From the NCBI GenBank assembly GCA_903826205.1, contig CAIKDP010000205.1:1-52238 (forward strand): a DNA stretch of 52,238 nucleotides, given 5' to 3'. Every line of letters begins with the position of its first letter. Within the stretch, counting starts at the first letter, position 1. This document shows positions 813 to 45,733 of this stretch, one piece after another. The position numbers were made by a program, and so were the translations under genes. This stretch comes from Akkermansiaceae bacterium (GTDB taxonomy: Bacteria > Verrucomicrobiota > Verrucomicrobiia > Verrucomicrobiales > Akkermansiaceae). The notes below the pieces were generated by a model, which worked only from the letters and a program-made list of their open reading frames with translations, searched no databases and had not been told where the DNA came from.

Positions 813-938
813 GGCCGAGTCAATTCCAGAGAGGTCCGCAGTGCAAGTGCGGAAACACTGTGGAAAAGAAGTTGGAAAATCGGGTTGGCAACCGTAGACA
901 TATCTCCGTCACGGGTTTTGAGTCAGCCAGCCCCCTCC

Positions 939-3900
939 ATGAGTAAATTTCCTTCCCTGTTCCATTCTATAGCCGTGGCCATGCTGGTCATGGTTTGCAG
1001 CCTGTATGGCGCCCCGCGCGCGCAAGCCGTCGTGTGGGGGACCGCCACTGCGCTGGCCACCGCCCGCGATTCCCACACCATGACCTTGCTGCCCACCGGC
1101 AAGGTGCTGGTCGTCGGCGGCCGCAACACGATCGGCAGCGCGCTGGTCAGTGCGGAGATATACAATCCGGCCACCAACACCTGGTCGGCAACGGCCTCGC
1201 TCACCACCGCCCGCTATTGGCACACGGCCACCCTTTTGCTCAATGGCAAGGTGCTGGTGGCTGGTGGTTTGGTTGGCGGCACCACGCTGGCCAGCGCCGC
1301 CTTGTACGACATCGCCTCCGGCACGTGGAGCGACACCGGGGCCATGAACCGCCCGCGTGATTCCTTCACGGCGACTTTGCTTGCCAACGGCAAGGTGCTG
1401 GTTACCGGCGGCTACAGCGGCAGCAGCATCACTAACAGCGCGGAACTTTTTGATCCGGCCACCGGCCTGTGGACGCCGACCGGAACGCTGGCCACGGCCT
1501 GTGCCAACCACACCGCCACCCTGCTCGCCAACGGCAAAGTGCTGGTTGTGGCCGGGGAAAACAGCCCGGATGTTGGCACTGCCCGGGCCGAACTCTATGA
1601 TCCGGCCACCGGCACCTGGTCGGCGGCCGGAACCTTGGCTGCACCCGCCTTTTATCACACCGCCACCCTCTTGCCCAATGGCATGGTGCTGGTCGTCGGT
1701 GGTAAGAAAAATGACACGTCCTCGCTGGCCACCGCCCAAACCTATGACCCGCTCACCGATACGTGGACGAGCACCGGGAGCCTGACCAAGGGCCGCTTCT
1801 CGCATAGCGCGAATTTGTTACCCAATGGCAAAGTGCTCGTTCTCGGCGGCTACAACAGCAGCAGCGGCATGCTCACCAGCGCCGAGCAATACGACTCCGC
1901 CACCGGCACTTGGAGCGCTCTGGGGTCGCTGGCCACCGCCCGCCTCACTCACACCACCACCCTCCTGCCCAATGCCAAGCTGCTCATCACCGCAGGTTGG
2001 AACGAGAGTCTCGGCACCACCCTGGCGACCTCCGAGGTGTTGGATCCGGCCACCGGTTCGGTCACTCCCACCGGTACCATGGCCGCCACCCGCTCCCAAC
2101 AGGCAGCCACCCTGTTGGCGAATGGCAAGGTGTTGTTAGCCGGCGGCTATACCGGCGCGGCCCTCGCCAGCGTCGACCTGTATAACCCGGCGGCCGGCAC
2201 CCTCGCCGCCGCCAGTCCCATGGCCGGTGCCCGCTACCTGCACTCGCTCACCCAACTCCAAAACGGCAAAGTCCTCGTCGCGGGAGGCAAAGCGGCTGCC
2301 ACCCTCGGCAGCGCGGAATTGTACGACCCCGATGCCGGGACTTGGACCGGCAGCGGTGCCATGACCACCACCCGTGAACTGCACACCGCCACACTCCTCC
2401 CCGATGGCAAGGTGCTCGTCGCAGGGGGACAATCCGGAGCCACCTCCCTCGCCACCGCGGAACTTTACAACCCGGCCAGCGGCGTCTGGACCCTCACCGC
2501 TGGCTTGGGCACGCCCCGCCATTCGCATACCGCCACCTTGCTGCCCAATGGCAAGGTGCTCGTCGTGGGCGGGAAAAGCGGGGGCACCACCCTTACCGCC
2601 GCGCAAGTGTATGATCCGGCCACCGCCACTTGGATCGCCGCGGCCTCGATGAACACCGCACGCTACCTGCACACCGCCACCTTGTTGTCCAATGGCAAGG
2701 TCCTGGTGACCGGCGGCTCGTCCGGAGTTGCCAATCTAACAAATGTGGAGGTGTATGATCCGGCCAACGATACCTGGGCCGTCACCGATTCCATGGCGGG
2801 GGCACGCGGTTCACACACGGCCACCCTGTTGCCTGGCGGCAAGGTGTTGATTGCCGGCGGCGTCAATGGCAGCGCCTCCCTGGCCACCACCGAAGTGTAT
2901 GATCCAGCCTCCGCCGGCTGGATCCCCGGCGCCACTCTTGGCAACCTGCGGAAATTCCACACGGCCTGCGTGCTCACCGATGGCCGCGTCTTCATCGCCG
3001 GCGGCTCGAGCGGCACCGGGGTTTATCTATCAAATGCCGAGTTGTATGACATCGGGCTTGGCTATCAATCCGCGTGGCAGCCGCATATCACGATCCCGGG
3101 CTCCGCGCTCATGCTTGGCGGCAGCGTGTCGCTCACCGGCACAACGTTCCGCGGCCTCTCCGGCGCCTCCTCGGGCACCACTCAGGACTCACCCGGCAAT
3201 TTGCCCTTCGTGCAAGTTTTCAGCGTGGAAAGTGGCCGCACGATGTTGCTGTCCCCCACCGGTTGGTCAGACACCACCTACGGTTCCGCCCTGTTTGCGG
3301 GATTCCCCGCCGGCACCGCCATCCTCACCCTAACCGTCAATGGCATCAGCGGCGCGGTTCTAACGCAAGTCAGCAAGGCTCCCGCCACCGTCGTCATCAG
3401 CGGCCTGGCGCAAGCCATCGACGGCACCCCGAAGAGCGTCACTGCCACCACCACGCCCGCCGGGCTGCCGGTGACTTACACTTATACCGGAACGGCAGGC
3501 ACGACCTACCCAACCTCGACCTCGCCGCCCACCGCCATCGGCACCTACACGGTGGTGGCCACCATCAACGACGCCAACTACGTCGGCACCGCGACGAGCA
3601 CACTGGTCCTCAGTGACGTCACGCCGTTTGCCGCCGGCAGTTCCCTCGGGCAATTCCGCCGCTATCACACCGCCACCTTGTTGAATAATGGCAAACTCCT
3701 GGTGACGGGAGGCCAAAGTTCGCTGGCGGCCTCTGCGGAATTGTATGACCCGGCCACCGGCACTTGGAGTCCCACGGGCACCATGAACTTGGCACGCATG
3801 TATCACACCGCCACGCTCCTGCCCAACGGCAAGGTCCTGGTCGCCGGCGGCAATGACGGCGGCTTTCTGGCGAGTGCGGAATTGTATGATCCGGCCACCG

Positions 3901-6374: not shown

Positions 6375-6470
6375 ATCTCCCGTGAACTTGCAGTGGAATC
6401 AGTGGTAAAAACCGTGTCTAGCACTTCCAGTTCGCCTTTTCAGGATCAACGCCGCCTTCCCTTTTCCCTT

Positions 6471-9383
6471 ATGAGAATCGCCCTCGCGCTTGCCGCACTC
6501 ATCCGCGTCGCCGCCGCCAATCCCGCGCCGCCGCCGGATTTTCCAGAGGTTGATCTAACACCCATGCCGGTGGCCTCGGCCGGCGAAGCCGCATGGACGG
6601 TCTCACTTGGTGGCTTGTGGAAGTTCCTGCCGCAGGCTGCCGCCGACGTCACCACTCTAACTGCCGCCGACCTCGCCGCGTGGGGGGGGATTGCGGTGCC
6701 CGGCCAATGGTACAACCAGAGGTATGATATTCCCGCCGGCCAAGCCGTCGCCTGCGCCACCACCTTTGACCGCCCGCAGGGGTGGCGTGACAAGCGGGTC
6801 AAGCTGCGTTTTGACGCCGTGTTCTCCGCATGCAAGGTCCATCTCAACGGCCATGAGCTCGGCAGCCACCTTGGCGGCTTCACGCCGTTCGAGTTCGATC
6901 TAACAGAATACATCAGGGACCGGGACAACCTGCTCGTGCTCACCGTCACCAGCGACTCCCTGGCGGACCGCATGGCCAGTGCCTCGAAGTATGCCTGCCA
7001 CCCGCTTGGCGGCATCAGTCGCGGCGTCACCTTGTTCGCCGTGCCTGCCACCCATATCTCCGATCTCATCATCCGCACTGATTTCGATGCCGCCTACAAA
7101 GACGCCACGCTTGAGGTGACCTTGGAGATCGACTCCAGCCACGCCAGCGGCCCCGGCAGCGAGGAGGTCCGGTTTGAGCTCCGCAACCCCGACGCCGGGC
7201 GGGTCGCCCTGCAAAACCCGGCATCGCGCGTGGCATGGTCCCAACCCGGCCGCCATCGCCAAACCTTCGCCTTCCCGATCACCGCCCCCCATTGGTGGAC
7301 CCCGGAGACGCCGCAAACCTATCTGCTGGATATCCGCTGCGGCGGCCACAGTGTCCGCCAGAAGGTCGGCTTCCGCAAAATCGAGGTCAAAGGCACCCGC
7401 GTGCTCGTCAACGGCCGCCCGGTGAAACTTCGCGGCATCAACCGCCATGAGAGCGACCCCTTGTTCGGGCGCAGCCTCGCAGCCGGCCAATGGCGCAAGG
7501 ACGCGCAATTGTTCCGCGACGCCAACGTCAACCTGATCCGCACCTGCCACTATCCGCCGGACCACCAGCTCGTCGAAGCCGCCGACGACCTCGGCATCTG
7601 GGTGGAAGTGGAGTCCCCTTTTTGTTGGGAAAACGGCTCCGGCGAGCCATCCCACCGCGAGGCCGCCTTGCGCCAGGTTGCCGAGATGATCAAACGCGAC
7701 CGCAACAATCCGAGTGTCCTGTATTGGTCGCTCGGCAATGAATCGACCTGGGGACCCAACTTCGAACTCTCCTCCAGGATGGTTAGAGAACTGGACCCCA
7801 CCCGCCCGCAGACCTTCGAGTGGACGCACAACTCGATCACCGAGACGGATGCCGCGTATTGCGAAATCGGCGCGGTGCATTACCCCGGCTTCAACGGTCC
7901 GGTGATGGCCAGGGAAAAATCCAAACGGCCCCTGTTCATGGGGGAATACTGCCACCTCAACGCCTACAACCGCCGCGAACTCATGACCGATCCCGGCCTG
8001 CGCGACCGCTGGGGACTCTACCTCCACCGCCTCTGGGAGCTAATGGATGCCGAACCTAACATCCTTGGCGGCGCCATCTGGTCCGGCATCGATGACACGT
8101 TCTTTCCCGCCCCGGATCTCACGCTCGGCTACGGTGCCTGGGGACCGCTCGATGGCTGGCGCCGGCCCAAGCCCGAGTATTGGCATGTGAAAAAGACCTA
8201 CTCGCCGGTGCGCGTCGATGACTCCGCTGCCGTCACTCTAACCAACGGGGTCCTGACCATCCCGGTTGAGAACCGCTCCGACTTTATCAATCTATCAAAA
8301 GTCGAGGCGCGCTGGAAAATCGGTGCCCAAGCCGGCGCCGTCCATGCCGATATTGCCTCCCGCCAACGCGGCACCCTCGTCATCACTCCCGCCCACCCCC
8401 CGGGGGCGGGTGAAATGTTAGAACTATCGTTCATTGACCCACGCGGCTTTGAAACCAACCGCTTTGTGCTCCCGCTGGCAGATCCGGCGCCGCCTTCCGC
8501 TGCCGTGGCGGAGCTGGGCGCACCCCAACTTGTAACCACGGACGGATTCTATCAAATCAAGTCCGGTGCCGCCGAATGGAGCATCGACCGCAAGACCGGC
8601 GCGCTCAGCATGCGTTCGGGCGCCACGCCGGTGATTCATGCCGGTCCGCACCTGTTGCTCATTCCACACAATGGCGAAGGCGAAACCCAAATGACTGGTA
8701 AAACCAAAATCCATGACGCGTATTCGCCGGTTTGCGGCGACTGGCAACTCCAACAAGTCGTGGCCGGGGTCCCCGCCGCCGGCCAAATCAAGGTGACCAT
8801 CCAGGGGACCTACGCCGAGGCCGGTGGTGCCTACACCTTGTTGTTTTCCAACACCGGAGTGGAGTTCGGCTATGACTTCAAGGTCAAACGCCACATCAAT
8901 CCGCGCCAAACCGGCGTCGCCTTTGATTTCGCCTCGGGCTTCGACCGCCTCTCCTGGAAACGCCGCGGGCTGTGGTCGGCCTATCCGGAGGATCACATCG
9001 GCCGCCCAGCCGGCACCGCCATCGCCGTCACCCCCGATGGCAAACCCGCCATCGAAATCGGCCCGCGCGAAAACCCCGGCACCTCCCCGTGGGCCAACGA
9101 CAACACCCGCTACGGCTCCAATGACTTCCGCTCGACCAAGGAAAACATCCTAAGCGCCGGTCTCGGCAGGACGACGGGCGGACCGGCATTCACGGTCACC
9201 TCGGACGGCTCCCAATCCGTTAGAGCCTGGCTTGACCCTAACACCCATCAGGCATGGCTGCTCATTGCCGGTTACACCAACGGTGGCTCGGAGCGCTTTC
9301 TGGATGGACTTGTCGAACCGGACAAACGCCCGCTCAAACCCGGCGCTGCAGCCGCCGCAACATTTCATATCTCATGTCCCTAA
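6471..9383 (+). CDS. Glycoside hydrolase family 2 enzyme (beta-galactosidase-like), secreted
   Basis: The product is about 970 residues, starting at ATG 6471, which gives a signal peptide (MRIALALAALIRVAAA). The frame is open to 6393, but that extension hides the signal. The order is LacZ-like: an N-terminal sugar-binding sandwich (about 40-200), an Ig-like domain, then the TIM barrel with the GH2 signature LRGINRHESD (about 319-328). The acid/base Glu is in YWSLGNES (about E424) and the nucleophile Glu in MGEYCH (about E492), so the active site looks complete. The C-terminal third (about 700-970) resembles the beta-galactosidase small-chain domain. The likely reaction is release of terminal beta-linked sugars such as galactose in the periplasm. 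It overlaps the next gene by 10 bp and shares an operon with a URO-D-like protein and a sodium symporter. Confidence 0.9.
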   Translation: MRIALALAALIRVAAANPAPPPDFPEVDLTPMPVASAGEAAWTVSLGGLWKFLPQAAADVTTLTAADLAAWGGIAVPGQWYNQRYDIPAGQAVACATTFDRPQGWRDKRVKLRFDAVFSACKVHLNGHELGSHLGGFTPFEFDLTEYIRDRDNLLVLTVTSDSLADRMASASKYACHPLGGISRGVTLFAVPATHISDLIIRTDFDAAYKDATLEVTLEIDSSHASGPGSEEVRFELRNPDAGRVALQNPASRVAWSQPGRHRQTFAFPITAPHWWTPETPQTYLLDIRCGGHSVRQKVGFRKIEVKGTRVLVNGRPVKLRGINRHESDPLFGRSLAAGQWRKDAQLFRDANVNLIRTCHYPPDHQLVEAADDLGIWVEVESPFCWENGSGEPSHREAALRQVAEMIKRDRNNPSVLYWSLGNESTWGPNFELSSRMVRELDPTRPQTFEWTHNSITETDAAYCEIGAVHYPGFNGPVMAREKSKRPLFMGEYCHLNAYNRRELMTDPGLRDRWGLYLHRLWELMDAEPNILGGAIWSGIDDTFFPAPDLTLGYGAWGPLDGWRRPKPEYWHVKKTYSPVRVDDSAAVTLTNGVLTIPVENRSDFINLSKVEARWKIGAQAGAVHADIASRQRGTLVITPAHPPGAGEMLELSFIDPRGFETNRFVLPLADPAPPSAAVAELGAPQLVTTDGFYQIKSGAAEWSIDRKTGALSMRSGATPVIHAGPHLLLIPHNGEGETQMTGKTKIHDAYSPVCGDWQLQQVVAGVPAAGQIKVTIQGTYAEAGGAYTLLFSNTGVEFGYDFKVKRHINPRQTGVAFDFASGFDRLSWKRRGLWSAYPEDHIGRPAGTAIAVTPDGKPAIEIGPRENPGTSPWANDNTRYGSNDFRSTKENILSAGLGRTTGGPAFTVTSDGSQSVRAWLDPNTHQAWLLIAGYTNGGSERFLDGLVEPDKRPLKPGAAAAATFHISCP

Positions 9384-10438
9384 CCAACCGCGATAACATC
9401 CTGCGCGCATTGCGCCGCCAACAACCGGAACAAGTCGGCTTCGACTTCGTGTTCTCACCGGCATTGCTGGAAGAATTCCGCCGCCGCACCGGGCGCGAGG
9501 ACTATCAGGAATACTATCAATTTCCGCTGCGCTGCATCGAGCTCGATGCGACGCGACTGCACACCGACTACACGGTTTTTTTCGGTGAGTTACCACCGGG
9601 CACGCGGCCTCTCGACTGGAATCCGGAATGGGGGATCATGGGCGCGCCGGGGCCGACCGCGCATTTCCAGGAAATGTTGCATCCGATGGCCGGGTTCGAA
9701 TCGGTCGCGCAGGTGCATGCCTATCCTTGGCCGGACTGGCTGGCAGACTACCGCTGGGACAATGTCCCGGCGCGGGTGGCCGGGCTCAAGGCCCGCGATC
9801 TGGTGGTGTGCGCGTTCATGGAGATGACCTTGTTTGAACTCGCGTGGTATCTGCGCGGCATGGACCGCTTCATGGAAGAACTCATCTGCGGGGACGAGAT
9901 CGCCACCGCCTTGCTTGACAAGCTCACCGCCATCCGCATCGGCATGGCACGGCGGTATGCGGCGTGCGGCGCCGACGTACTTATGTTAGGTGACGACGTG
10001 GCGACCCAGCTCGACATGATGATCAGCCCGGCGTTGTGGCGCCAGACGCTCAAGCCGCGGCTGACCGAGGTGATCCGCGCCGCCAAGGAGGTGAACCCGG
10101 ATATCCTCATTTTCTATCACGGCGACGGCAACATGGAGCGGATCGTGCCTGATTTGATAGAGATCGGCGTGGAGATTCTCAACCCGGTGCAACCGGAGTG
10201 CATGGATCCGCTGCGCATGAAGGAATTGTTTGGCGACAAGCTCGCATTCTGGGGGTGCATCGGCACCCAGACGACCATGCCCTTCGGCACGCCTGACGAG
10301 GTCAAACAGACGGTTGGAAAGCTGATAGCCACGGTCGGCAGGGGCGGCGGGCTGTTGCTCGCGCCAACGCACACGCTCGAGCCTGATGTGCCATGGGCCA
10401 ATGTTGAGGCTTTGCTTGCGGCGGTGGAAACCCCATAG
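9374..10438 (+). CDS. Uroporphyrinogen decarboxylase (URO-D) family protein
   Basis: The product is 354 residues. ATG 9374 overlaps the GH2 stop by 10 bp, so translational coupling is likely. The fold family is that of HemE and of MtaA/CmuA-type corrinoid methyltransferases: DVATQ, FYHGDG (H249), a VEILNPVQPECMDP loop (C276), WGCIGTQ (C295) and a GTPDEV helix. The N-terminus lacks the RQAGRY active-site motif of true HemE, so haem synthesis is unlikely. Single His and Cys residues near the MtaA zinc positions leave a metal-dependent methyl-transfer role possible, though the classical HxC is HGD here. Family members in this phylum often sit in sugar operons with unknown reactions. The neighbours (GH2 upstream, Na+/solute symporter 8 bp downstream) point to glycan catabolism. 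Confidence 0.85.
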   Translation: MSLTNRDNILRALRRQQPEQVGFDFVFSPALLEEFRRRTGREDYQEYYQFPLRCIELDATRLHTDYTVFFGELPPGTRPLDWNPEWGIMGAPGPTAHFQEMLHPMAGFESVAQVHAYPWPDWLADYRWDNVPARVAGLKARDLVVCAFMEMTLFELAWYLRGMDRFMEELICGDEIATALLDKLTAIRIGMARRYAACGADVLMLGDDVATQLDMMISPALWRQTLKPRLTEVIRAAKEVNPDILIFYHGDGNMERIVPDLIEIGVEILNPVQPECMDPLRMKELFGDKLAFWGCIGTQTTMPFGTPDEVKQTVGKLIATVGRGGGLLLAPTHTLEPDVPWANVEALLAAVETP

Positions 10439-10446
10439 TTACCGCG

Positions 10447-12420
10447 ATGAGCACCTTGGACCTGATTTTGTTTGTTGTCGCGGTGGTTGGCGTCATTGCC
10501 ATGGGCATCCGCATGGGCCGCAGGGAAGCCACGGCGGGGGGGGACGAGACCGGCGACTATTTCCTCGCCGGTCGCGGGCTGTCATGGTGGCTCATCGGCT
10601 TTTCCTTGATAGCCGCCAACATCTCCACCGAGCAATTTGTCGGCATGTCCGGTCAGGCCGCCGACTGGTTGGGCCTGGCGATCGCGTCATATGAATGGTT
10701 GTCGGCGATTGCCTTGGTGGTGGTGGCGTTCGTGTTTCTGCCGCGGCTGCTGCGCTGCGGGATCTATACGATTCCGGAGTTTTTGGAATACCGCTTCAGT
10801 CGCTTGTCGCGCATTGTGATGGCCTTGTTGTCGATGGCGGTGATTGTCGGTGTGCCGTCGGCGTCGGTGATTTATTCCGGAGCCAAGGTGATCAGCGTGT
10901 TTTTCCACGGGGCGACGGTGGCGGGTGTGGATCTGGGCAGTGTGCAGGCCGGGTGTTGGATCATCGGGCTGGCGGCGGCGGTGTATGTGTTGGTCGGCGG
11001 CCTGAAGGCCTGCGCCTGGACCGATCTGGTGTGGGGTTCGGCCTTGATTGTCGGCGGGGCCATCGTGATGTGGCTGGCGTTCAGCGCCTTGGCGGAGATG
11101 CCGGCGCGCGACTTGGTGGCGACCAAGGTGGCGGGCTCGCCGGCCACCATCGAACAGTTGGAGAGTGCGGGGCCGCTGCAGCGCTTCCTGATGTTGAACC
11201 AGGGACCGGTGGCGGAGGGCCCGAATCTATCAGGAGGCAAGCTGCATCTGGTGCGGCCCAAGAGCGACAGCGATTTGCCGTGGACGGCGTTGGTGTTCGG
11301 GCTGTGGATCCCGTGCTTTTTTTATTGGGGGCTCAACCAATATGTGGTGCAGCGCACGCTCGGGTCGAAATCATTGGCGGAAGGGCAGAAGGGCATCGTC
11401 CTCGCGGCCGGGCTCAAGTTGTTGATTCCATTCGTGGTGGTGGTGCCCGGCATGTTGTGCTTCAATCTCTATCGGAATGATTTGCGCGGCCAGGCGGATC
11501 TCCGGAATGCCCCGGTACTCGAACTCATGCAAACCGGCAACCCGTCGTCCGTCATTCCTTTCACCGCCGAGTTCGCCGGATTGCAAACGGCAACCGCCGC
11601 GCAAGTGGTCGCCCACAATGCCCGCCTGACCGGCACCAGCCCAAGCCTCACCCGGGCCCCCACCGCCGCGGAACTGATGGCCGCCAACACACCTATGTTA
11701 GAGGCGGCGGCGGCACGCGGGATGCCGTCGAGCCAGCGCTTGGTTGGACACGACTATGACTCGGCGTTTGGCATTCTGTTGCGGCGCTTGCTCAAGCCCG
11801 GCATCACATGGTTTGTATTGGCCGCGATGTTTGGTGCGGTGGTCAGCTCGTTGGCGGCGATGCTCAACTCGGCCTCGACGATTGCCACCATGGACCTTTA
11901 TGCGGCGGTGCGCAAAAGCGCGTCGCAACGCGAATTGGTGGGGGCGGGGCGGGTGTTTGTGGGCATCTTCGTGCTAATCGCGATCATGGCCGCAGTGGTG
12001 CTGGCCGACGGCTTGCAGAGTGTGTTTCGTTATATCCAGGAGTTCCAGGGATTCATCAGCCCCGGGGTGCTGGCGGTGTTCTTGTTCGGCTTTCTGGTGC
12101 CGCGGGCGCCGCGTTTCCTTGGGTGGTTTGGCATCCTGCTCAATGCCGTGCTCTACGCCGCCTTCACCTGGTGGCTCGGGCCCATTCTATGCGGCGCCGG
12201 CCTGTGGTGGGCGCCGCAAATGTCGTTCCTCGACCGCATGGGCGTGTGCTTTTTGTTAGTTTCGGCCGCCTGTGCCGCCGCCACCGTCCTCTATCCGCTG
12301 GCCGAACCGGTGCGCATGCCCGTCACCGGGCGCATTCCTCTCATCCACTCGCGCCCAGCCATGTGGTGTGGCTTTGTGGTCATAGGCCTCACGCTGTTGC
12401 TCTATATCGTGCTATGGTAG
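10447..12420 (+). CDS. Sodium:solute symporter (SSS/SGLT family)
   Basis: This is a 657-residue polytopic membrane protein. SSS hallmarks include GDYFLAGR, the ANISTEQFVGMSG stretch of the first transport helices, GIYTIPEFLEYRF, and the FQGFISPGVLAVF helix near the end. Homologues take up sugars such as galactose, or other small solutes, with Na+ across the inner membrane. An extramembrane insertion of about 90 residues (about 343-433, rich in Ala, Thr and Pro) separates two transmembrane helices. It starts 8 bp after the URO-D-like gene and is the likely importer for the product of the GH2 enzyme. The substrate cannot be read from sequence. Confidence 0.92.
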   Translation: MSTLDLILFVVAVVGVIAMGIRMGRREATAGGDETGDYFLAGRGLSWWLIGFSLIAANISTEQFVGMSGQAADWLGLAIASYEWLSAIALVVVAFVFLPRLLRCGIYTIPEFLEYRFSRLSRIVMALLSMAVIVGVPSASVIYSGAKVISVFFHGATVAGVDLGSVQAGCWIIGLAAAVYVLVGGLKACAWTDLVWGSALIVGGAIVMWLAFSALAEMPARDLVATKVAGSPATIEQLESAGPLQRFLMLNQGPVAEGPNLSGGKLHLVRPKSDSDLPWTALVFGLWIPCFFYWGLNQYVVQRTLGSKSLAEGQKGIVLAAGLKLLIPFVVVVPGMLCFNLYRNDLRGQADLRNAPVLELMQTGNPSSVIPFTAEFAGLQTATAAQVVAHNARLTGTSPSLTRAPTAAELMAANTPMLEAAAARGMPSSQRLVGHDYDSAFGILLRRLLKPGITWFVLAAMFGAVVSSLAAMLNSASTIATMDLYAAVRKSASQRELVGAGRVFVGIFVLIAIMAAVVLADGLQSVFRYIQEFQGFISPGVLAVFLFGFLVPRAPRFLGWFGILLNAVLYAAFTWWLGPILCGAGLWWAPQMSFLDRMGVCFLLVSAACAAATVLYPLAEPVRMPVTGRIPLIHSRPAMWCGFVVIGLTLLLYIVLW

Positions 12421-38394: not shown

Positions 38395-40308
38395 CTACTG
38401 CAAGCCGGCGCGGAGCACCTCCACGGTGCCGCTGCCGGCGGCGGTGGACATCAGGTACACGCCATTCCAGCCTTCGCGCACAAGCCAACGGATTTGCTCG
38501 GCGGCGATTTCCTGTCCGACCTTGGTCTGATCGGCCACGTTTGGCAATGCGGCAAAGCGTTGTAAAATCGCGTCGGGGATGACCACACCGGGGACGCGTG
38601 CCATCCGTTGGGCATGCTCGAAGTGGGTCAGCACCATCACACCGATGAGAAAGGGTGTCTGGCCACGGAATTTTTCCAACGCCGCCAGCGGCGCGTGATG
38701 AAAGGCGGGCTGGGTCATGACGTAATCCACGCCGTTGTCGATTTTCTGCTGCAACCGGGACAACTCGCGCGGCATGTCGCGCGCTTCCAGTTCAACGCCT
38801 GCACCGATGGTGAAATGCGTGCGCGGGTCGGGCTGCTTGCCGAGCGGCACGCCGCCAAAATCCACCCCGGCATTCAGGCAGGAATGGGTCAAGCGGATCA
38901 TCGCAAGGGAATCCAGATCAAACACCGCGGCCGAACGTGGATAGGTGGGCGACATTTTCGGGGGATCACCGGTGACAAACAGCACGTTGTGGATGCGGTT
39001 GGCGTGAAGGCCGACCAAGCGGCTTTGCACGCCCATGACGTTGAGGTCGCGGCCCGTAAAGTGCGGGATGAGTTCCAGCGCATCGCCTGTTAGAGCGTTC
39101 CAGTTGAGGTTTTCCCGGATCAGGTGAATGAAATCCCCGGGCGAAATCAGCGGGATGCCCCGTGAACCGTCGGTGAAATCCACCGCATCCACCAAGCCGC
39201 TGGCCGCCAGCTTGGCGATAAAATCCACCTTGTTCCGGATGATCCTCGGGTCCGTTCCGCGCGGCGGCAGCGCCTCAATGCTGACCACAAAGCGGCCGCT
39301 CTTGAGTTTGTTAGAAAAGCCGCCATTGAGCGCCTTCGCCGCGTCGTCCGCGGGCGGCAGGGTTGTTGTCACCTGCACCGTGGCCACCCGCGCGGCGACA
39401 TTGCGGGATTGGAGGTAGTTGTGCATCTCCTGGATGTGCGGCGGATGCATTTCGCAACACCCGCCGATCAAGCGCACCCCGTGATCGGATAGAGTGCGCG
39501 CCATCTTGCCGGCGAACTCCGGGTTGACGGAAGTCATGAGACGGTTGCCGATGCGCTGGAAGCCGGCGGCATTGGGCATCACAACCAACTGCATGGCTCC
39601 GCTACAGACCGGCGCGATGTCCTTGACGGCGGCCACAAACGCGTCGGCATCCCAGGGCGCGCAGCAATTGACTCCGGCGACGGCCACACCCAGCGCGGCC
39701 ATGCGGTTGACGAAGGTGACGGGGTCGGGTTCGAGCGCTTGCCCGGTGCTGCCGGAGCGCAGAGTCATCTCCGCAATCACCGGCGGGGCGTTGGGCAGCG
39801 AGCGGATCAGGCCGATGAGCAACTCCAGTTGCGGCAACGAGCTGAACGTTTCTAACAACAATGCATCCGCGCCGGCGGCGATGAGCGTCTCCAGCTGCTC
39901 GCGATAACAATCCGCCACCGCATCCGCCGTGGTGAGCGGCTTGGCCGTCGGCCCGACCGAGGCCAGCACGAAACAGGGCGCGGTTTCGCCGCGTTGGATC
40001 TGGAATTTGGCAATAGCCGTGCGGGCGATTTCCACGGCGGCGCGGTTCACTGCGGCGGTCTTGCCATCGAGGCCGAATTGCGCCAACTGTTGGCGGTTGG
40101 CACCGAACGTATTGGTTTTGAGGCATTGCGCGCCGGCACTGAGGTAGGCGAGGTGAACCTTCTGGATGAGTTCCGGTTGTTCGAGGTTGAACGCCTCGTA
40201 CACGTGGTTGGTTTCTGATAGCCGCCCGGTCAGCTCGAACAAATACGATCCCATCGCGCCGTCGGCGAGCAAGGGTTGCGACTGCAGTGTGGTTAGAAAA
40301 TCAGCCAT
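38395..40308 (-). CDS. Bifunctional homocysteine S-methyltransferase / methylenetetrahydrofolate reductase
   Basis: The product is 637 residues from ATG 40308. The N-terminal half (about 1-300) is a homocysteine methyltransferase barrel: LLADGAMGSYL, LKTNTFGANR, and the zinc cysteines in GVNCCAPW and IGGCCEMHPPH. The C-terminal half (about 330-620) is an MTHFR barrel (SIEALPPRG, LFVTGDPP, YVMTQPAF). The fusion is the YitJ type known from Bacillus. It can form methyl-THF and methylate homocysteine to methionine using a methyl donor. It is the last gene of the one-carbon operon and overlaps the transporter gene by 8 bp. It gives the operon a second MTHFR activity. Confidence 0.92.
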   Translation of the reverse strand: MADFLTTLQSQPLLADGAMGSYLFELTGRLSETNHVYEAFNLEQPELIQKVHLAYLSAGAQCLKTNTFGANRQQLAQFGLDGKTAAVNRAAVEIARTAIAKFQIQRGETAPCFVLASVGPTAKPLTTADAVADCYREQLETLIAAGADALLLETFSSLPQLELLIGLIRSLPNAPPVIAEMTLRSGSTGQALEPDPVTFVNRMAALGVAVAGVNCCAPWDADAFVAAVKDIAPVCSGAMQLVVMPNAAGFQRIGNRLMTSVNPEFAGKMARTLSDHGVRLIGGCCEMHPPHIQEMHNYLQSRNVAARVATVQVTTTLPPADDAAKALNGGFSNKLKSGRFVVSIEALPPRGTDPRIIRNKVDFIAKLAASGLVDAVDFTDGSRGIPLISPGDFIHLIRENLNWNALTGDALELIPHFTGRDLNVMGVQSRLVGLHANRIHNVLFVTGDPPKMSPTYPRSAAVFDLDSLAMIRLTHSCLNAGVDFGGVPLGKQPDPRTHFTIGAGVELEARDMPRELSRLQQKIDNGVDYVMTQPAFHHAPLAALEKFRGQTPFLIGVMVLTHFEHAQRMARVPGVVIPDAILQRFAALPNVADQTKVGQEIAAEQIRWLVREGWNGVYLMSTAAGSGTVEVLRAGLQ

Positions 40309-41554
40309 CTGTGGAGGGTGTATCACCGGGCTTGGCCGGAGTCAAAAGCAACGACAACAAAAATCCCAGCATGAGCAACCCGGCACCGAGGGCAAAGGCA
40401 TACCCGGACGCTTGCGGGCCATACCGGTCTTTGAGCCAGGCGATGACTTGCGGGCCGACGATGCCGGCGGCGGACCAGGCGGTTAGAATGCACCCGTAGA
40501 GCACGGGCATGAGCCGCGGGCCGAAGGTGTTGAGGACAAACGACGGCATGACCCCGAAGCCGCCGCCGTAGCAGAGCAGGATGTAACAGATGAGCGGCAC
40601 AAACACCCACGGGTTGCCGGTGAGCATCAGCGCGATGAAGGCGATGACCTGGCTGGCGAGCATCAGGCGGAAGGTGTGGATCTGGCCGAGGCGGTCGGAC
40701 ATGCCACCCCACGCGAAGCGGCCGAGGCCGTTGAACACGGAACTGACCGCGATCAAAGTCGCACCGTAGGTTGCCAGAATGGCCGGCGACAGACACGGGT
40801 CGATTTTTTTCAGCAAATCCTGCAACAGCGGCGACTGGAAGCTGATGATGGCAATGCCGGCCACGATGTTGCAGAAGAAGACCAGCCACATCAGAACGAA
40901 TCGCCGGGAGACGAGACGCGGCCAGGCCTTTTCACCACCCGCCACCACCGCCGCCGTGTCCGGCGGATTGCGCAAACAACTGGCCGCCAACAGGCTTGTT
41001 AGGCCGAGGGTCACGCCGATGCCGGCAAAAACCTCCGCCAATTGGTTAGGGAACGCGGCCGTGAGTGCCGGCGCAATGACTTTGCTCATCAGCAGCGCAC
41101 CGAAGCCGAAACCCATCACGACCATACCCGTGACCAGACCTTTCTTGTCGGGAAACCATTTTGCGGCGGTCGCGACCGGGGTGACATAACCGAGGCCCAG
41201 ACCGATGCCGCCCACCACGCCATAGCCGATCCACAACAGCGGCAACGATCGCATGTGCAACGCCATGGCCGCCAGCAAATAGCCGGCACCGTAGCACAGG
41301 CTGCCGGCGACGGCCAGTTTGCGCGGCCCGAATTTCGGCAGCAAGACGCCGCCGACGGCCGCGGCGACGCCGAGGAAACCAATGGCCAGACTGAAGGTCC
41401 AGGCGACTTGCGTGTTGCGCCAGCCATAGGTGTCCACGAGCGGTTGTTGGAAATAACTCCAGGCGTAAACCGCGCCCAGGCACAACTGCAACAAGGTGCC
41501 CATGCCGGCAATGAACCAGCGATAACCGGGGTGGGAATGAGCCGGGGTCACCAT
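40301..41554 (-). CDS. Major facilitator transporter, OFA (oxalate/formate antiporter) family
   Basis: The product is 417 residues with 12 predicted membrane segments. OFA features include the N-terminal RWFIAGMGTLLQLCLGAVYAWS-like helix, PLVDTYGW, GVVGGIGLGLGYVTPVATAAKWFPDKKGLVTG, and NGLGRFAWGGMSDRLG between the halves. Members exchange oxalate, formate or other carboxylates. The gene overlaps the fhs stop by 1 bp and the next gene by 8 bp, so it is co-translated with formate-using enzymes. Formate uptake is the economical guess, but the substrate is not proven. Confidence 0.88.
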   Translation of the reverse strand: MVTPAHSHPGYRWFIAGMGTLLQLCLGAVYAWSYFQQPLVDTYGWRNTQVAWTFSLAIGFLGVAAAVGGVLLPKFGPRKLAVAGSLCYGAGYLLAAMALHMRSLPLLWIGYGVVGGIGLGLGYVTPVATAAKWFPDKKGLVTGMVVMGFGFGALLMSKVIAPALTAAFPNQLAEVFAGIGVTLGLTSLLAASCLRNPPDTAAVVAGGEKAWPRLVSRRFVLMWLVFFCNIVAGIAIISFQSPLLQDLLKKIDPCLSPAILATYGATLIAVSSVFNGLGRFAWGGMSDRLGQIHTFRLMLASQVIAFIALMLTGNPWVFVPLICYILLCYGGGFGVMPSFVLNTFGPRLMPVLYGCILTAWSAAGIVGPQVIAWLKDRYGPQASGYAFALGAGLLMLGFLLSLLLTPAKPGDTPSTDG

Positions 41555-43230
41555 CAGAACAAGCCGACGATCTGGCCGTCATCGTTGATATCTATCACCT
41601 CGGCGGAAGGCACCTTCGGCAGCCCGGGCATGGTCATGATGTTGCCGGTCAGGACAACAATGAACCCGGCACCGGCGCTCAGCTTCACATCGCGGATCGG
41701 CACATCGAAGTGCTTCGGGCGGCCGAGCAGCGCGGGGTCGGTGGAGAGTGAATACTGCGTCTTGGCCATGCACACCGGCAGATGGGCGTAGCCGGCGGCT
41801 TCAAAGTCCTTGAACTTCTGCCGGATCTTGACGTCGGCCATGATGTTGTCCGCACCGTAGATGTTCTGGGTCACGGCGCGGACCTTGTTCCAGAGGCTCA
41901 TCTCGTCGGTGTAGAGGAATTGGAAATTGTTAGATCGCGGTTGTTCCGCCAACGCGACCACGGCGTGGGCCAGATCCTCCGCGCCGGCACCGCCGCGTGC
42001 CCAGTGATCGGCCTTGATGGCGCGCACGCCGAGCGTCTGGCAATGGTTCTCGATGAGGGCGACTTCCTCGTCGCTGTCGCTGGTGAAATGATTGATGGCA
42101 ACGACGGTCGGCAGGTTATACATCCGGATGTTTTCCAAATGTTTCTCGAGGTTTTCGAGGCCTTTTTCAACGGCGGCCAGATTGGGCTTGGCCAGATCGG
42201 CCTTCAGCACACCCCCGTGCATCTTGAGCGCGCGGACGGTGGCCACGATGACCACCACGCTCGGTTGGATGCGGGCGATGCGGCACTTGATGTCGAGGAA
42301 TTTTTCCGCGCCGAGGTCGGCCCCGAAGCCGGCTTCGGTGACGGTGTAGTCGGCGAGGCGCATGCCGAGTTTGGTGGCGAGCACGCTGTTGCAGCCGTGG
42401 GCGATATTGGCAAACGGGCCGCCGTGCACAAAGGCCGGGGTGCCTTCCAGGGTTTGCACGAGGTTGGGTTTGAGCGCGTCCTTGAGCAGCACGGCCATCG
42501 CGCCATGGGCCTTGAGGTCGGCCGCGGTCACCGGCTTCTTGTCGCGGGTGTAGGCAACGACGATCTTGCCGAGGCGATCCCGCAACTCCTTGAGCGATTC
42601 GGATAAACAGAAGATGGCCATGACTTCGGAGGCCACGGTGATGTCGTATCCGGACTCGCGCGGCGTGCCGTTGGCGCTGCCACCCAGACCGAGGACAATG
42701 TCGCGCAGGGCGCGGTCGTTCATATCCACGACGCGGCGCCAGGTGATCCGGTTGACGTCGATGTTGAGTACATTGCCGTGGGTCAGGTGGTTGTCCAACA
42801 TCGCGGCCAGCAGATTATGGGCCGCGCCAATGGCGTGGAAATCGCCGGTGAAGTGGAGGTTGATGTCCTCCATCGGAATCACTTGTGCATAACCACCACC
42901 AGCCGCACCGCCCTTGACGCCGAAGCACGGACCAAGGGACGGTTCACGCAAACAGATCACGGCGCGCTTGCCGATGCGGTTGAGCGCGTCGCCTAGACCC
43001 ACGGTCGCCGTCGTCTTGCCTTCCCCGGCCGGGGTCGGATTGATGGCGGTGACGAGAATGAGTTTGCCGGTCGGGGCGTTGTCGAGGGACTGGAAGTAGT
43101 CGAGCGAGATCTTGGCCTTGTACTTGCCGTAATGTTCGAGGTCGTCATCAGGGATGTGCAGCTTCGCCGCGATCTCCTTGATGGGTTTGATCTTGGCCGC
43201 ATTGGCGATTTCGATGTCGGAGAGGGACAT
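41554..43230 (-). CDS. fhs: Formate-tetrahydrofolate ligase
   Basis: The product is 558 residues from ATG 43230, the family length. The ATP loop TPAGEGKTT is at about residues 64-72. [23 protein letters not shown], the FTGDFHAI segment, [14 protein letters not shown] and [14 protein letters not shown] are all intact. It joins formate to THF with ATP, giving 10-formyl-THF. It lies between the AcsE-like methyltransferase gene (25 bp) and the OFA transporter gene (1-bp overlap). FolD, needed for the next two steps, is not in the window. Confidence 0.97.
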
Positions 43231-43255
43231 GTCCGGATTTTTCGTTAGGGGATGG

Positions 43256-44119
43256 TCAGGCGTAATATTCCTGGACGCGCATGATGACATCGAGGCCCTC
43301 GAGTTGCAGGCATTCGTTGACGCAAAGCATGGCGGGATGGTCGGCCGGCAGGAAGTCGTATTTGCGTTTGACCGAACCGATGACGTGATCCATGCCCAGC
43401 GGCACGGCGAGGGTGAGGAAGGCGCTTTCCAGCGGGCCTTTGGTGGGTGAACCGTCGGCGCGCTTGGGCGGCAGCATCACGCTGAAATTGCTCAGGCCGA
43501 CCGACATGTGAACGCCCTTGAGTGCGGGGTCGGCGTGAATCAGGCGAATGGCGCCCATCAGGCATTGCAAGCGGCCGTCGGTATCCGCGCCGATGGGCGA
43601 GATGGCGGGATCGATGATGCAATGCTCGACGGGGATGCCGTGCTTGGCCGCTTCCGCCACCAGCTCGCGCGCGGTCTGGTAGACTTCCTCGGCGCTGTGG
43701 TTGGCACAACTGGCACCGTTTTCCACCCGCTCGGAGGCCAGCAGGATCGGCATGAACGGCATGATCCTGGCAAGCTCGAACATCTCCAAACGCAGCGGCG
43801 AAATGGAATTCAATATCGGCAAGCGCCCGCCCGCCCGCTCGCGGTCGTAGACCTTGAGTGCAAGCTCGGCCATGGCCGGATCGGGGGTATCAATGGAGAT
43901 TGGCTTGGCGGTGACGCTTTGCACGTGCCGCACCATTTCGGCCAGAAAGGCGCCGGGCCGGGGGCCGACGTTGACGTCAATGTAGCCGGCCCCTCCGAGG
44001 TCCTGGGACACGGCCAGTTCTTTCAAGCCGTCAAGGTCGTTGGCCTCGAAAAATTTGTGGGTGGATGGCACCGAATCGTTGATGGATTCGCCGATGATGG
44101 TCAGGTTGGGAATAGGCAT
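43256..44119 (-). CDS. Methyltetrahydrofolate methyltransferase, AcsE-like pterin-binding protein
   Basis: The product is 287 residues, about the size of AcsE and of the pterin domain of MetH. It is a TIM barrel of the DHPS/methyltransferase group: [62 protein letters not shown]. In acetogens the enzyme moves the methyl of methyl-THF to a corrinoid iron-sulfur protein. No corrinoid protein, CO dehydrogenase or acetyl-CoA synthase gene is in the window, so a role in methionine synthesis or demethylation is more likely than acetogenesis. It lies 12 bp after the MetF-MetV fusion. Confidence 0.88.
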
Positions 44120-44131
44120 GTGCTGTTGTTG

Positions 44132-45733
44132 TTAGATTGAAGGTGCGGCGGGTTGGTCAGGAGTCGGCTTTTTTGAGGAATGATCCTTGCCCAGCCAGAA
44201 ATTCGCCCAACTCGAGGTGCCGCGCAGCCCCTGATTTTGAATCACGGGCGGGCGCTGGAGAAGTTGCTCGGACTGCCCCTCGTATTTCATGCGGTCGTAG
44301 GCCCGCGCCCAAATGCAGTCATACTCAAAGACCTCGCAGGTGCCGTCGCGCGAACCGCCGCACGGGCCGTTGCGCTGGTTCTTGGCGCATTGGGATTCGG
44401 GACACAGAAAAGCGGTTTCCCCCAGCGAGCAATCGCCGCAATCCTGACACGAAAACATGACCGATTTGGCGACGTGCTCGATGCCGCGCAGCCACGACGG
44501 GCCCTGGCTGGGATCCTTGGCCTTGCGGCAGATCTTTGCGCCCAGCGGGGCCAGCCCTTTGCCATGTTCAAACATCAGCGCATGAAAGCGCTTCGAGAGT
44601 TGGTAGCTGAGGGTGACATTCTTGTTAGACCGGCGGGCGGACAGGGATTTTTTCCATTCCCCGTTGAGTTCGCCCGGGCGGCACAGGCCGGTGTCCGGGT
44701 CCTGTTCAAAGAGGAAAAATTCGTCGGGGCGGGAGTAGGCGATTTCCCTGGCAAAGAGTTTCCAATCATCGCGGGTGAAGGATTGTTCCAGATCGAGGAT
44801 TTTTTCCACATCGGCATAGCTGTGCACGCCTCCCAGATAACCCGCCTGATAGCCCAGACCCCGGCAGATCGCCAGTTGCTTGGCGGCAAATTCGAGGAAA
44901 AACCCCTTGCCCTTGTCGGGTGACGCCGCCTGCTTCTGGCAGAGCGCGTTGAGTTCGTCTGTTAGAACAACCCCCGGCACTTTCATTTGATTGAACAGGC
45001 GCGCCACAAACGGGCTCAACACATAGACATTGCCAACCATCCGGGTGTGATCCAGTTGTCGCAGGCGCAGGTATTCGAGCAATTCGTGGCCCTTGCGGGA
45101 ATCAAAGCCGATCTGATGGATGATGAACTGCGCGCCGCTGGAAATCTTTTTTTCCAGTTTGTAATACTGGGGCAGCAGGGTGTTCTCATGGAACTTGAAA
45201 TTACACATGGCGGCCCCGGCAAAGAAATGGGTGGCGTCGAGCTTGGTCGGCGGCTTGGTGCCGCCAGAGGCGACTTCCAGCCCCTTGTTCAACTTGTCAA
45301 TCATGGTCAGCAAGCCCACCGACTCGATGTCGAAAACGGGCTTGGCCCGGCCTTCAAAACTCTCGATCGGGTAGTCACCGGTGAGCGCCAAAATATTGTG
45401 AAACCCTTGGCTGGCCAGCATCCAGAGTTGGCTTTCCAGCGCGTAGCGGTTCATGTCCTTGCACGTCAGATGGATGACCACTTCCTTGCCGGCAAACAGA
45501 ATGGGGGTACCCAGGACGGTGGGGGCCAGTTGCGGATTGCCACCGGCATTGTCCGTGATGGACACCCAATCAATGCGCGGACTGTGCGTCAGGTCCGCGG
45601 AAAACCCCCGGCTTTTGAGCGTCTGCTTTTGGGACATGGTGCCACGGGTGGACACCAACTCAACTCCAATCGGGAAACGCGCGGTTTCCGAGAGGATTTG
45701 TTTGAGCCGTAGGTTGGAAGCTAAATCAATCAT
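44132..45733 (-). CDS. MetF-MetV fusion: methylenetetrahydrofolate reductase with Cys-rich C-terminal domain
   Basis: The product is 533 residues. The N-terminal two thirds is an MTHFR barrel (GVELVSTRG, DWVSITDNAGGNP, VVIHLTCKDMNR, LALTGDYP, FIIHQIGFDSRKG). The C-terminal part (about 430-490) carries a cysteine cluster, CQDCGDC, then CPESQCAKNQRNGPCGG and GTCEVFE. This is the MTHFR C-terminal/MetV domain that binds zinc or an Fe-S cluster and partners MetF in acetogens. A single-chain form suggests electron input other than NADH alone. It is the first gene of the five-gene operon, 86 bp after the ABC ATPase gene. Confidence 0.9.
   Translation of the reverse strand: MIDLASNLRLKQILSETARFPIGVELVSTRGTMSQKQTLKSRGFSADLTHSPRIDWVSITDNAGGNPQLAPTVLGTPILFAGKEVVIHLTCKDMNRYALESQLWMLASQGFHNILALTGDYPIESFEGRAKPVFDIESVGLLTMIDKLNKGLEVASGGTKPPTKLDATHFFAGAAMCNFKFHENTLLPQYYKLEKKISSGAQFIIHQIGFDSRKGHELLEYLRLRQLDHTRMVGNVYVLSPFVARLFNQMKVPGVVLTDELNALCQKQAASPDKGKGFFLEFAAKQLAICRGLGYQAGYLGGVHSYADVEKILDLEQSFTRDDWKLFAREIAYSRPDEFFLFEQDPDTGLCRPGELNGEWKKSLSARRSNKNVTLSYQLSKRFHALMFEHGKGLAPLGAKICRKAKDPSQGPSWLRGIEHVAKSVMFSCQDCGDCSLGETAFLCPESQCAKNQRNGPCGGSRDGTCEVFEYDCIWARAYDRMKYEGQSEQLLQRPPVIQNQGLRGTSSWANFWLGKDHSSKKPTPDQPAAPSI

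What the first reader, a model, noticed from the sequence alone, without database searches (positions are those of the whole stretch)
38395..45733. Compact formate-to-methyl operon without acetogenesis genes
Five tightly spaced or overlapping genes encode a MetF-MetV fusion, an AcsE-like methyltransferase, Fhs, an OFA-family transporter and a homocysteine methyltransferase/MTHFR fusion. This is most of the methyl branch of the Wood-Ljungdahl pathway plus a possible formate importer, but the end point is homocysteine, not CO dehydrogenase. The pterin-binding and homocysteine-binding modules of cobalamin-dependent methionine synthase are here two separate proteins, so a corrinoid shuttle encoded elsewhere would complete a 'split MetH'. 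Two MTHFR domains in one operon is also odd.
Basis: partly seen in the sequence, partly recalled or inferred. Interest (0 to 1): 0.68.

Follow-up and report, generated by a model that had tools for sequence, protein, structure and literature searches.

The report
Methyl-to-formate operon in Verrucomicrobia
A five-gene cluster in a bacterium related to Verrucomicrobia looks like the folate half of a vitamin-B12 system that strips methyl groups off other molecules and burns them to formate, with a side branch to methionine, rather than a route that builds methyl groups from formate.

Summary
The five genes are real, collinear and correctly recognised. The missing corrinoid shuttle exists: a free 211-aa corrinoid protein (CorP) on another contig, and a corrinoid reactivase (RACo) in an operon with DUF1638 and an AraC regulator. 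In 79 genomes a homologue of the operon's methyltransferase (MeTr) occurs in 7, free CorP in 14 and RACo in the same 14, all 7 included. MetVF-MeTr-Fhs is kept in 23 of 28 named loci, the full five-gene order in 8. Relatives place this core beside CorP, RACo or DUF1638 and URO-D-family genes, which a methionine synthase would not need. A metH is present as two adjacent genes; acetyl-CoA synthase (CdhC) was not found. So "split MetH" is only partly right. I favour a demethylation hub, CH3-X to CorP to H4F to formate plus ATP, with a methionine branch, as in Ruegeria MtgBCDE (PMC12478193). Direction and substrates are unproven. Side find: a REP-flanked transposase domain sits in frame at one site of MetH in 14 of 23 related metH loci examined and has moved between lineages.

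The parts
44132..45733 (-). MetVF: methylene-H4F reductase fused to a MetV-type cysteine-rich C-terminal domain; first gene. Expected to interconvert CH3-H4F and CH2=H4F
   Evidence: PF02219 + PF12225; eight cysteines in residues 429-473
43256..44119 (-). MeTr: methyl-corrinoid:H4F methyltransferase (MTII / MtgA-MtgD type)
   Evidence: PF00809, PRK07535 below cut-off; best PDB match 4o0q/4o1e/4o1f; four residues invariant in 32 of 32 rows
41554..43290 (-). Fhs: formate-H4F ligase, likely run as formyl-H4F to formate + ATP (inferred); probable start at 43230
   Evidence: PF01268 906 bits; inner ATG
40301..41554 (-). MFS monocarboxylate carrier, OFA/SfMCT-like; substrate unknown, formate export is a guess
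   Evidence: NF049980 SfMCT 313 bits against 185 and 150 for the oxalate/formate models
38395..40326 (-). Homocysteine S-methyltransferase fused to a second MTHFR; branch to methionine (inferred)
   Evidence: PF02574 + PF02219; PRK08645 424.5 bits, cut-off 453; NCC/GGCC
9374..10438 (+). URO-D family protein in the same window; possible substrate:corrinoid methyltransferase (His-x-Asp in place of His-x-Cys), between a GH2 glycosidase and a sodium:solute symporter. Membership in the system is inferred
   Evidence: PF01208; MtaA/CmuA-type models before hemE, all below cut-off; alignment; neighbours; relatives at 43-48% near the operon in 8 of 28 named loci

Best explanation
The operon is the tetrahydrofolate half of a dispersed corrinoid-dependent demethylation network. 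Substrate methyltransferases (URO-D family, and in this genome one MttB-family protein beside a BCCT betaine-type carrier) put methyl groups on a free corrinoid protein, CorP, kept active by RACo with DUF1638 (shown as genes; activity inferred). MeTr moves the methyl to H4F; MetVF oxidises CH3-H4F to CH2=H4F; FolD, encoded elsewhere, makes formyl-H4F; Fhs releases formate and makes ATP; the carrier may export the formate (direction inferred). The HMT-MTHFR fusion takes part of the methyl flow to methionine (inferred). MeTr is probably reversible, so methionine can also be made when no methyl donor is present.
For: Free CorP with both B12 domains, nearest models being MtgC and the methyltransferase-cognate corrinoid family, below their cut-offs. 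Of 79 genomes: MeTr homologue in 7, free CorP in 14, RACo in the same 14, the 7 nested within. Physical links elsewhere: CorP-MeTr-UROD (L044, the same locus as L028); RACo-DUF1638 | CorP-MetVF-MeTr-Fhs (L036); CorP-UROD-UROD-RACo-MeTr (L040, a Burkholderiaceae MAG, 26-43% identities); MetVF-MeTr-Fhs | four URO-D-type genes + CorP | DUF1638 (L025, L027). URO-D hits lie in the held DNA of 12 of 28 named loci, weak ones (24-29% identity) in three of these (L031, L039, L040), and L028's is the query itself. The same AraC type (53-61% identical) precedes MetVF in 7 of 28 and sits in the RACo operon. The own genome has 11 URO-D genes; the 9 of them scanned that gave NCBIfam matches all score better to MtaA/CmuA-type models than to hemE, every one below cut-off. 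One MttB-family gene is followed by a BCCT carrier. In Ruegeria the comparable MetF2 is inferred from proteomics to oxidise methyl-H4F during betaine growth, and MtgC and MtgD serve both demethylation and methionine synthesis.
Against: No expression, flux or biochemistry. In this genome CorP, RACo and the operon are on separate contigs and only one URO-D gene shares the operon's contig, 28 kb away; physical linkage is seen only in relatives. Only 4 of the 7 MeTr homologues are close (80-100%); G054 has 44%, G018 and G028 39%. 7 of the 14 CorP/RACo genomes lack a MeTr homologue, though two of these (G019, G024) are under 60% complete. HMT-like genes (28-30% to the operon's) lie beside CorP in 6 of the 13 CorP genomes whose CorP region I fetched (G018, G022, G024, G046, G054, G067), and a second distant HMT-like gene lies in six of the 28 named loci: CorP serves methionine too. 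MttB-family genes occur in only 2 of 79 genomes, MtaB in 3 of 79 and not in the own genome, so no single substrate explains the operon. MetVF enzymes are best known in the reductive direction (recalled). The URO-D proteins are divergent; one cluster member (L025:16847-17977) falls under Pfam's cut-off; a URO-D gene is not proof of a methyltransferase. Formate dehydrogenase was not searched for.
Confidence: 0.55

Rival explanations
1. One reading: an anabolic split methionine synthase. Fhs, FolD and MetVF turn formate into CH3-H4F, MeTr loads CorP, and the HMT domain makes methionine.
For: HMT fused to MTHFR in the operon; CorP, RACo and DUF1638 present, the same set as in the P. inhibens split MetH. 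HMT-like genes lie beside CorP in 6 of 13 CorP genomes looked at (three checked in Pfam). PMC5764234 notes bacteria such as S. meliloti with both MetH and the RamA/DUF1638 pair.
Against: A two-gene metH is present. The operon-type HMT-MTHFR is found in 11 of 28 named loci (L023, second half only, counted; five more contigs end too early to tell), while MeTr-Fhs is in 25 of 28. The URO-D genes have no place in this model.
Confidence: 0.2
2. A two-way methyl-balancing hub with no main direction: methionine when methyl donors are absent, demethylation when present, as shown for Ruegeria MtgC/MtgD.
For: This dual role is reported for Ruegeria; both branches are encoded here, and CorP has HMT-like or URO-D neighbours, or both, in many relatives.
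Against: The separate metH weakens the need for the methionine branch; the carrier adds nothing to it.
Confidence: 0.2
3. A remnant or partial Wood-Ljungdahl pathway (acetogenesis).
For: Fhs, MetVF and MeTr are methyl-branch enzymes; the RACo scores 313 bits to AcsV (cut-off 800).
Against: No CdhC match in the genome; MeTr is nearer to 4o0q than to the corrinoid/iron-sulphur MeTr entries.
Confidence: 0.03

Closest known systems
MtgBCDE glycine-betaine demethylase / methionine synthase of Ruegeria pomeroyi (PMC12478193; outline with abstract, passages and Results part 1 of 2 read)
   Same: Free corrinoid protein, pterin methyltransferase, homocysteine methyltransferase, RamA-like reactivase, DUF1638, a MetF paralogue downstream of mtgD, MttB-family donor enzymes, BCCT carrier
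   Different: Here MetVF, Fhs and a monocarboxylate carrier are in one operon with MeTr, HMT is fused to MTHFR, a metH coexists, and URO-D rather than MttB-family genes are the common neighbours
Split MetH of Phaeobacter inhibens (PMC5764234; passages read)
   Same: Three-part enzyme plus DUF4445/RamA and DUF1638
   Different: P. inhibens has no PF02965 protein; this genome has a metH with that domain
O-demethylase and Cdm chloromethane systems (UroD MTI, corrinoid protein, MTII, activating enzyme) of acetogens (PMC13222342; passages read)
   Same: URO-D family donor enzyme, corrinoid protein, H4F methyltransferase, activase
   Different: No acetyl-CoA synthase found here; parts scattered; substrates unknown
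Type 1 mlp gene clusters (PMC10418091; abstract and passages read)
   Same: Several URO-D paralogues with a corrinoid protein and Ram/RACE
   Different: By definition they have no H4F methylase within 20 kb; here one is central
Chloromethane CmuA/CmuB-MetF2 route of methylotrophs and LigM-MetF-LigH of Sphingobium (recalled, not read)
   Same: Methyl to CH3-H4F to formate in aerobes
   Different: CmuA is a fusion of donor enzyme and corrinoid protein; here CorP is separate

Membership tests
Corrinoid-dependent methyltransferase system (donor MT, corrinoid protein, H4F MT, activase) | H4F methyltransferase with conserved pocket residues | tested here: met
Corrinoid-dependent methyltransferase system (donor MT, corrinoid protein, H4F MT, activase) | Free corrinoid protein with cap and B12 domains | tested here: met
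Corrinoid-dependent methyltransferase system (donor MT, corrinoid protein, H4F MT, activase) | RACo/RamA activase | tested here: met
Corrinoid-dependent methyltransferase system (donor MT, corrinoid protein, H4F MT, activase) | Identified donor methyltransferase and substrate | tested here: inconclusive
   URO-D paralogues and one MttB-family gene present, all below curated NCBIfam cut-offs where scanned; no substrate shown
Split methionine synthase | Separate pterin, corrinoid and homocysteine proteins plus reactivation proteins | tested here: met
Split methionine synthase | Serves as the methionine synthase, no MetH with PF02965 | tested here: inconclusive
   metH2 with PF02965 is present, though the domain carries an insert; PMC5764234 notes that some bacteria have both sets, so this is not strictly defining; function not testable here
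Glycine betaine demethylase MtgBCD | MttB-superfamily MtgB | tested here: inconclusive
   One MttB-family gene in the own genome, in 2 of 79 genomes overall; its PDB relatives include a glycine betaine MT; substrate unknown
Wood-Ljungdahl acetogenesis | Acetyl-CoA synthase (CdhC/AcsB) | tested here: not met
   0 matches at E <= 0.001; genome about 98% complete
Type 1 mlp gene cluster | No H4F methylase within 20 kb | tested here: not met
   Definition; MeTr lies beside CorP and URO-D genes in relatives
Formate carrier of the oxalate/formate (OFA) family | Passes the oxalate/formate models | tested here: not met
   185 of 374.85 and 150 of 335 bits

The most novel reading that the evidence does not exclude
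Verrucomicrobia of this kind run a many-to-one demethylation hub: about ten divergent URO-D methyltransferases, at least two of them next to glycosidase genes, each strip methyl groups from a different, still unknown natural product (O-methyl or S-methyl) onto one shared corrinoid protein, and one operon converts all of it to formate and ATP, making formate a by-product of polysaccharide feeding without methanol dehydrogenase or acetogenesis.
Probability: 0.3. Interest if true: 0.7.

Novelty: new variant of a known kind. Interest (0 to 1): 0.5.

Why it matters
Corrinoid demethylation is mostly known from anaerobes and, since 2025, from marine Proteobacteria. An ordered methyl-to-formate operon with scattered URO-D donor enzymes in Verrucomicrobia, many of them from lakes judging by isolate names, would add a source of formate and a sink for methyl groups in fresh water, and it hands over a set of uncharacterised methyltransferase candidates with defined partners (CorP, RACo, MeTr) against which substrates can be screened.

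Tried and rejected
Acetogenesis: no CdhC. Methanol as the substrate: MtaB is absent from the own genome; 3 of 79 relatives have it, and none of these has a MeTr match. Glycine betaine as the general substrate: MttB-family genes in only 2 of 79. Riboswitch control: no Rfam match at gathering score in window, L041 or L003, although I had suspected a cobalamin riboswitch before DUF6580. Formate importer: the carrier fails both oxalate/formate models. A type 1 mlp cluster: excluded by definition. I first took the C114 URO-D gene for hemE because it lies near hemC and hemD; it has no NCBIfam match at all, so that is withdrawn, and no URO-D protein I scanned passes the hemE cut-off. C457, a fragment at a contig end, was not scanned.

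Literature (open-licence PMC texts only): searches (2 papers, both listed; 3 of 3; 20 of 44 listed; 20 of 73; 10 of 13; 20 of 40; 12 of 44) listed no paper on this operon in Verrucomicrobia that I recognised from titles and abstract starts. Passages of PMC11264602 name Verrucomicrobia only as methanotrophs. A search touching in-frame transposase insertion in MetH listed nothing on it among 10 of 158 papers.

Full report
What is there. The window lies in a 5.57-Mb draft genome in 469 contigs, 97.66% complete. Its nearest named relative is a MAG labelled Akkermansiaceae (L013, MeTr 92% identical; the same place as G035's). On the minus strand, in order, are MetVF (45733-44132), MeTr (44119-43256), Fhs (43290 or 43230 to 41554), an MFS carrier (41554-40301) and HMT-MTHFR (40326-38395). 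MeTr keeps D77, N104, D170 and N211 in all 32 rows aligned, 31 distinct; one search puts them opposite the same residues of 4o0q and 2yci. That these bind folate is recalled; PMC13222342 uses 4O1E and 4O1F as models of CH3-H4F and H4F binding, while the PDB names 4o0q a dihydropteroate synthase. The upstream gene is an ABC exporter ATPase on the same strand, 86 bp away.

The missing parts. The genome has two B12-cap (PF02607) matches at E <= 0.01: a MetH and a free 211-aa corrinoid protein, CorP (L041:6963-7598, minus), next to a DUF6580 gene. It has one RACo (L079:7078-8733) directly after a DUF1638 gene and an AraC regulator, one FolD, 11 URO-D genes (12 match rows, two of them in one frame) and one MttB-family protein followed by a BCCT carrier and a Cys/Met PLP enzyme. 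Of the URO-D proteins, 10 of 11 were scanned against NCBIfam: nine score best to MtaA/CmuA-type methyltransferase models (best 186.5 of 235.4 bits), above hemE where hemE appears, none over a cut-off; the tenth (C114, near hemC and hemD) has no match. No CdhC was found.

Co-occurrence. In the same 79 genomes (49 of the genus with the own one, 30 of the order) a MeTr homologue at E <= 1e-10 is in 7: G000, G035, G046 and G025 at 80-100% identity, G054 at 44%, G018 and G028 at 39%. Stand-alone CorP (frames of 313 aa or less, best E 1.4e-58 or lower; counted by hand) is in 14, and RACo in 14, exactly the same ones. All 7 MeTr genomes are among the 14. Treating genomes as independent, which they are not, the chance of identical sets is 8e-16 and of the nesting 1.2e-6. 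So CorP and RACo belong together and MeTr goes with them; the 7 CorP/RACo genomes without a MeTr match show that CorP has other outlets (two of these, G019 and G024, are under 60% complete).

CorP neighbours. I fetched the CorP region of 13 of these 14 genomes (not G028). CorP lies beside or near MtaB in G019 and G017; beside a URO-D of the G017 type in G017, G022, G024, G047 and G018; beside or near other URO-D genes in G025, G054, G056 and G067 (L098); and beside an HMT-like gene in G018, G022, G024, G046, G054 and G067, three of which I confirmed in Pfam. In the own genome and G035 no such neighbour was seen. Methionine is therefore a frequent outlet of CorP, which counts for the rivals.

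Gene order in relatives. Of 28 named loci, MeTr-Fhs are adjacent in 25, MetVF-MeTr-Fhs in 23 and the full five-gene order in 8 (two of these cut by a contig end, L019 and L026); five more contigs end inside or just after Fhs or the carrier (L014, L015, L016, L024, L034). The held DNA also contains CorP in 6 of 28 (L025, L027, L028, L036, L039, L040), RACo or DUF1638 in 5 (L025, L027, L036, L039, L040), URO-D hits in 12 (weak in L031, L039, L040; L028's is the query itself), the AraC type upstream of MetVF in 7, and a second, distant HMT-like gene (28-33%) in 6 (L017, L020, L021, L026, L031, L036). L025 was checked in Pfam: three clear URO-D proteins, a fourth just under the cut-off, then CorP, then DUF1638 on the other strand. 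L013, L019 and L028 are the same places as the G035, G046 and G025 regions.

Mosaic operon. Window and L013 carry a MetVF that groups with those of G018 and G028 (99/98 support) and is 45-56% identical to the MetVF of the other loci (28% in L026, cut by the contig end), although MeTr and Fhs are 70-92% and 60-93% identical to theirs; the MeTr of G018 and G028 is far away (36%). MetVF has been swapped. L026, L031 and L036 are long branches in that tree.

How it probably works. URO-D genes with the activase are the mark of demethylation rather than of methionine synthesis. PMC10418091 states that in bacteria such clusters transfer methyl groups to H4F, and that a His-Cys-Cys zinc site in URO-D enzymes marks S-methyltransferases, with carboxylates or lost ligands in O-methyltransferases. 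In my alignment C121 and C124 have His-x-Cys plus the later Cys; C33, C25, C129, C75 and the G025 enzyme have His-x-Cys without the later Cys; the window protein and C360 have His-x-Asp; C51 and the L045 enzyme lack the His. This suggests mixed S- and O-substrates, as inference only; PMC13222342 reports a UroD-family enzyme needing no zinc. The methyl would go to H4F through MeTr, be oxidised by MetVF and FolD, and leave as formate with ATP from Fhs. In Ruegeria, MetF2, encoded downstream of mtgD, was the most differentially synthesised protein on N-osmolytes and was proposed to oxidise methyl-H4F, and mtgC and mtgD mutants lose both methionine synthesis and growth on betaine. HMT-MTHFR offers the methionine branch. 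The second MTHFR is thus less odd: one sits with the methyl-oxidising core, the other with the methionine domain.

Against. Nothing was measured. In this genome the parts are unlinked, apart from one URO-D gene 28 kb away in the window. MetVF enzymes are known mainly as reductases (recalled). The substrate is unknown and differs among relatives. metH coexists, so neither branch is shown to be needed.

Side find. The own metH2 is interrupted in its activation domain by a Y1/REP-associated-type transposase domain, in frame (PF01797 32 bits, cut-off 23). I looked at 23 metH loci of this genus (16 of them picked by frame length, 11 long and 5 shorter, so frequencies are biased): 15 hold the domain, 14 at the same place between ...ALADW and ...GGFV, G035 at another place near a contig end; G017 has a different insert; 7 have a linker of a few residues. 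Insert and host trees disagree. G014 and G016 have identical inserts (0 of 89 four-fold sites differ) while the 100 codons before and 80 after differ at about half of theirs; G007 and G044 have almost identical hosts but inserts only 51% identical. In the nine pairs computed insert dN is far below dS, two of them with dS saturated. In 13 of the 14 copies the two ends share an exact inverted repeat of 9 to at least 12 bases (search stopped at 12), mostly starting GTAG or GTGG; the own copy shows it only imperfectly, by eye. This behaves like a REP-transposase element that keeps homing to one in-frame site, as inteins do; the intein comparison is mine. Exchange of the insert by recombination with very short flanks is not excluded.

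Verdict. Real and conserved; a new variant of the known corrinoid methyl-transfer systems, more likely catabolic than the formate-to-methionine route proposed.

Noticed in passing
L003 (G000:C360) metH2 3677-7537, insert about residues 876-1113; L126, L131-L142: A REP-flanked Y1/RAYT-type transposase domain lies in frame inside the activation domain of MetH, at the same site in 14 of 23 related metH loci examined (16 of the 23 picked by frame length). Identical inserts in differing hosts and differing inserts in near-identical hosts point to repeated site-specific movement, intein-like.
   Followed up: partly
L128 (G035) and L127 (G017): MetH of two relatives carries other in-frame insertions: a transposase domain at a second place (G035, at a contig end) and a different stretch in the B12 region (G017).
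   Followed up: partly
window 44132-45733; L013, L046, L047: MetVF of the window lineage was swapped for the type found with a different MeTr in G018 and G028.
   Followed up: yes
window 6393-12420: A URO-D gene sits between a GH2 glycosidase and a sodium:solute symporter, as if part of a sugar-use locus; another own-genome URO-D gene (L078:7057-8118) lies near an alpha-amylase-family gene.
   Followed up: partly
L119 (G000:C164) 5532-9894: MttB-family gene, BCCT carrier and a methionine-gamma-lyase-like gene in a row on one strand.
   Followed up: partly
L099, L101 and L121-L123 (G019, G017, G022): Three relatives have MtaB (methanol:corrinoid methyltransferase family), next to CorP in G019 and near it in G017, and none of them has a MeTr match.
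   Followed up: partly
L076:7465-9198: A URO-D-family frame near hemC and hemD does not match the hemE model, and no other URO-D protein scanned passes hemE's cut-off, so the genome's true hemE was not identified.
   Followed up: partly
window 363-6374: A 2003-codon frame with many Kelch-like repeats ('ATLLPNGKVLVAGG'), seen in the ORF list only.
   Followed up: no
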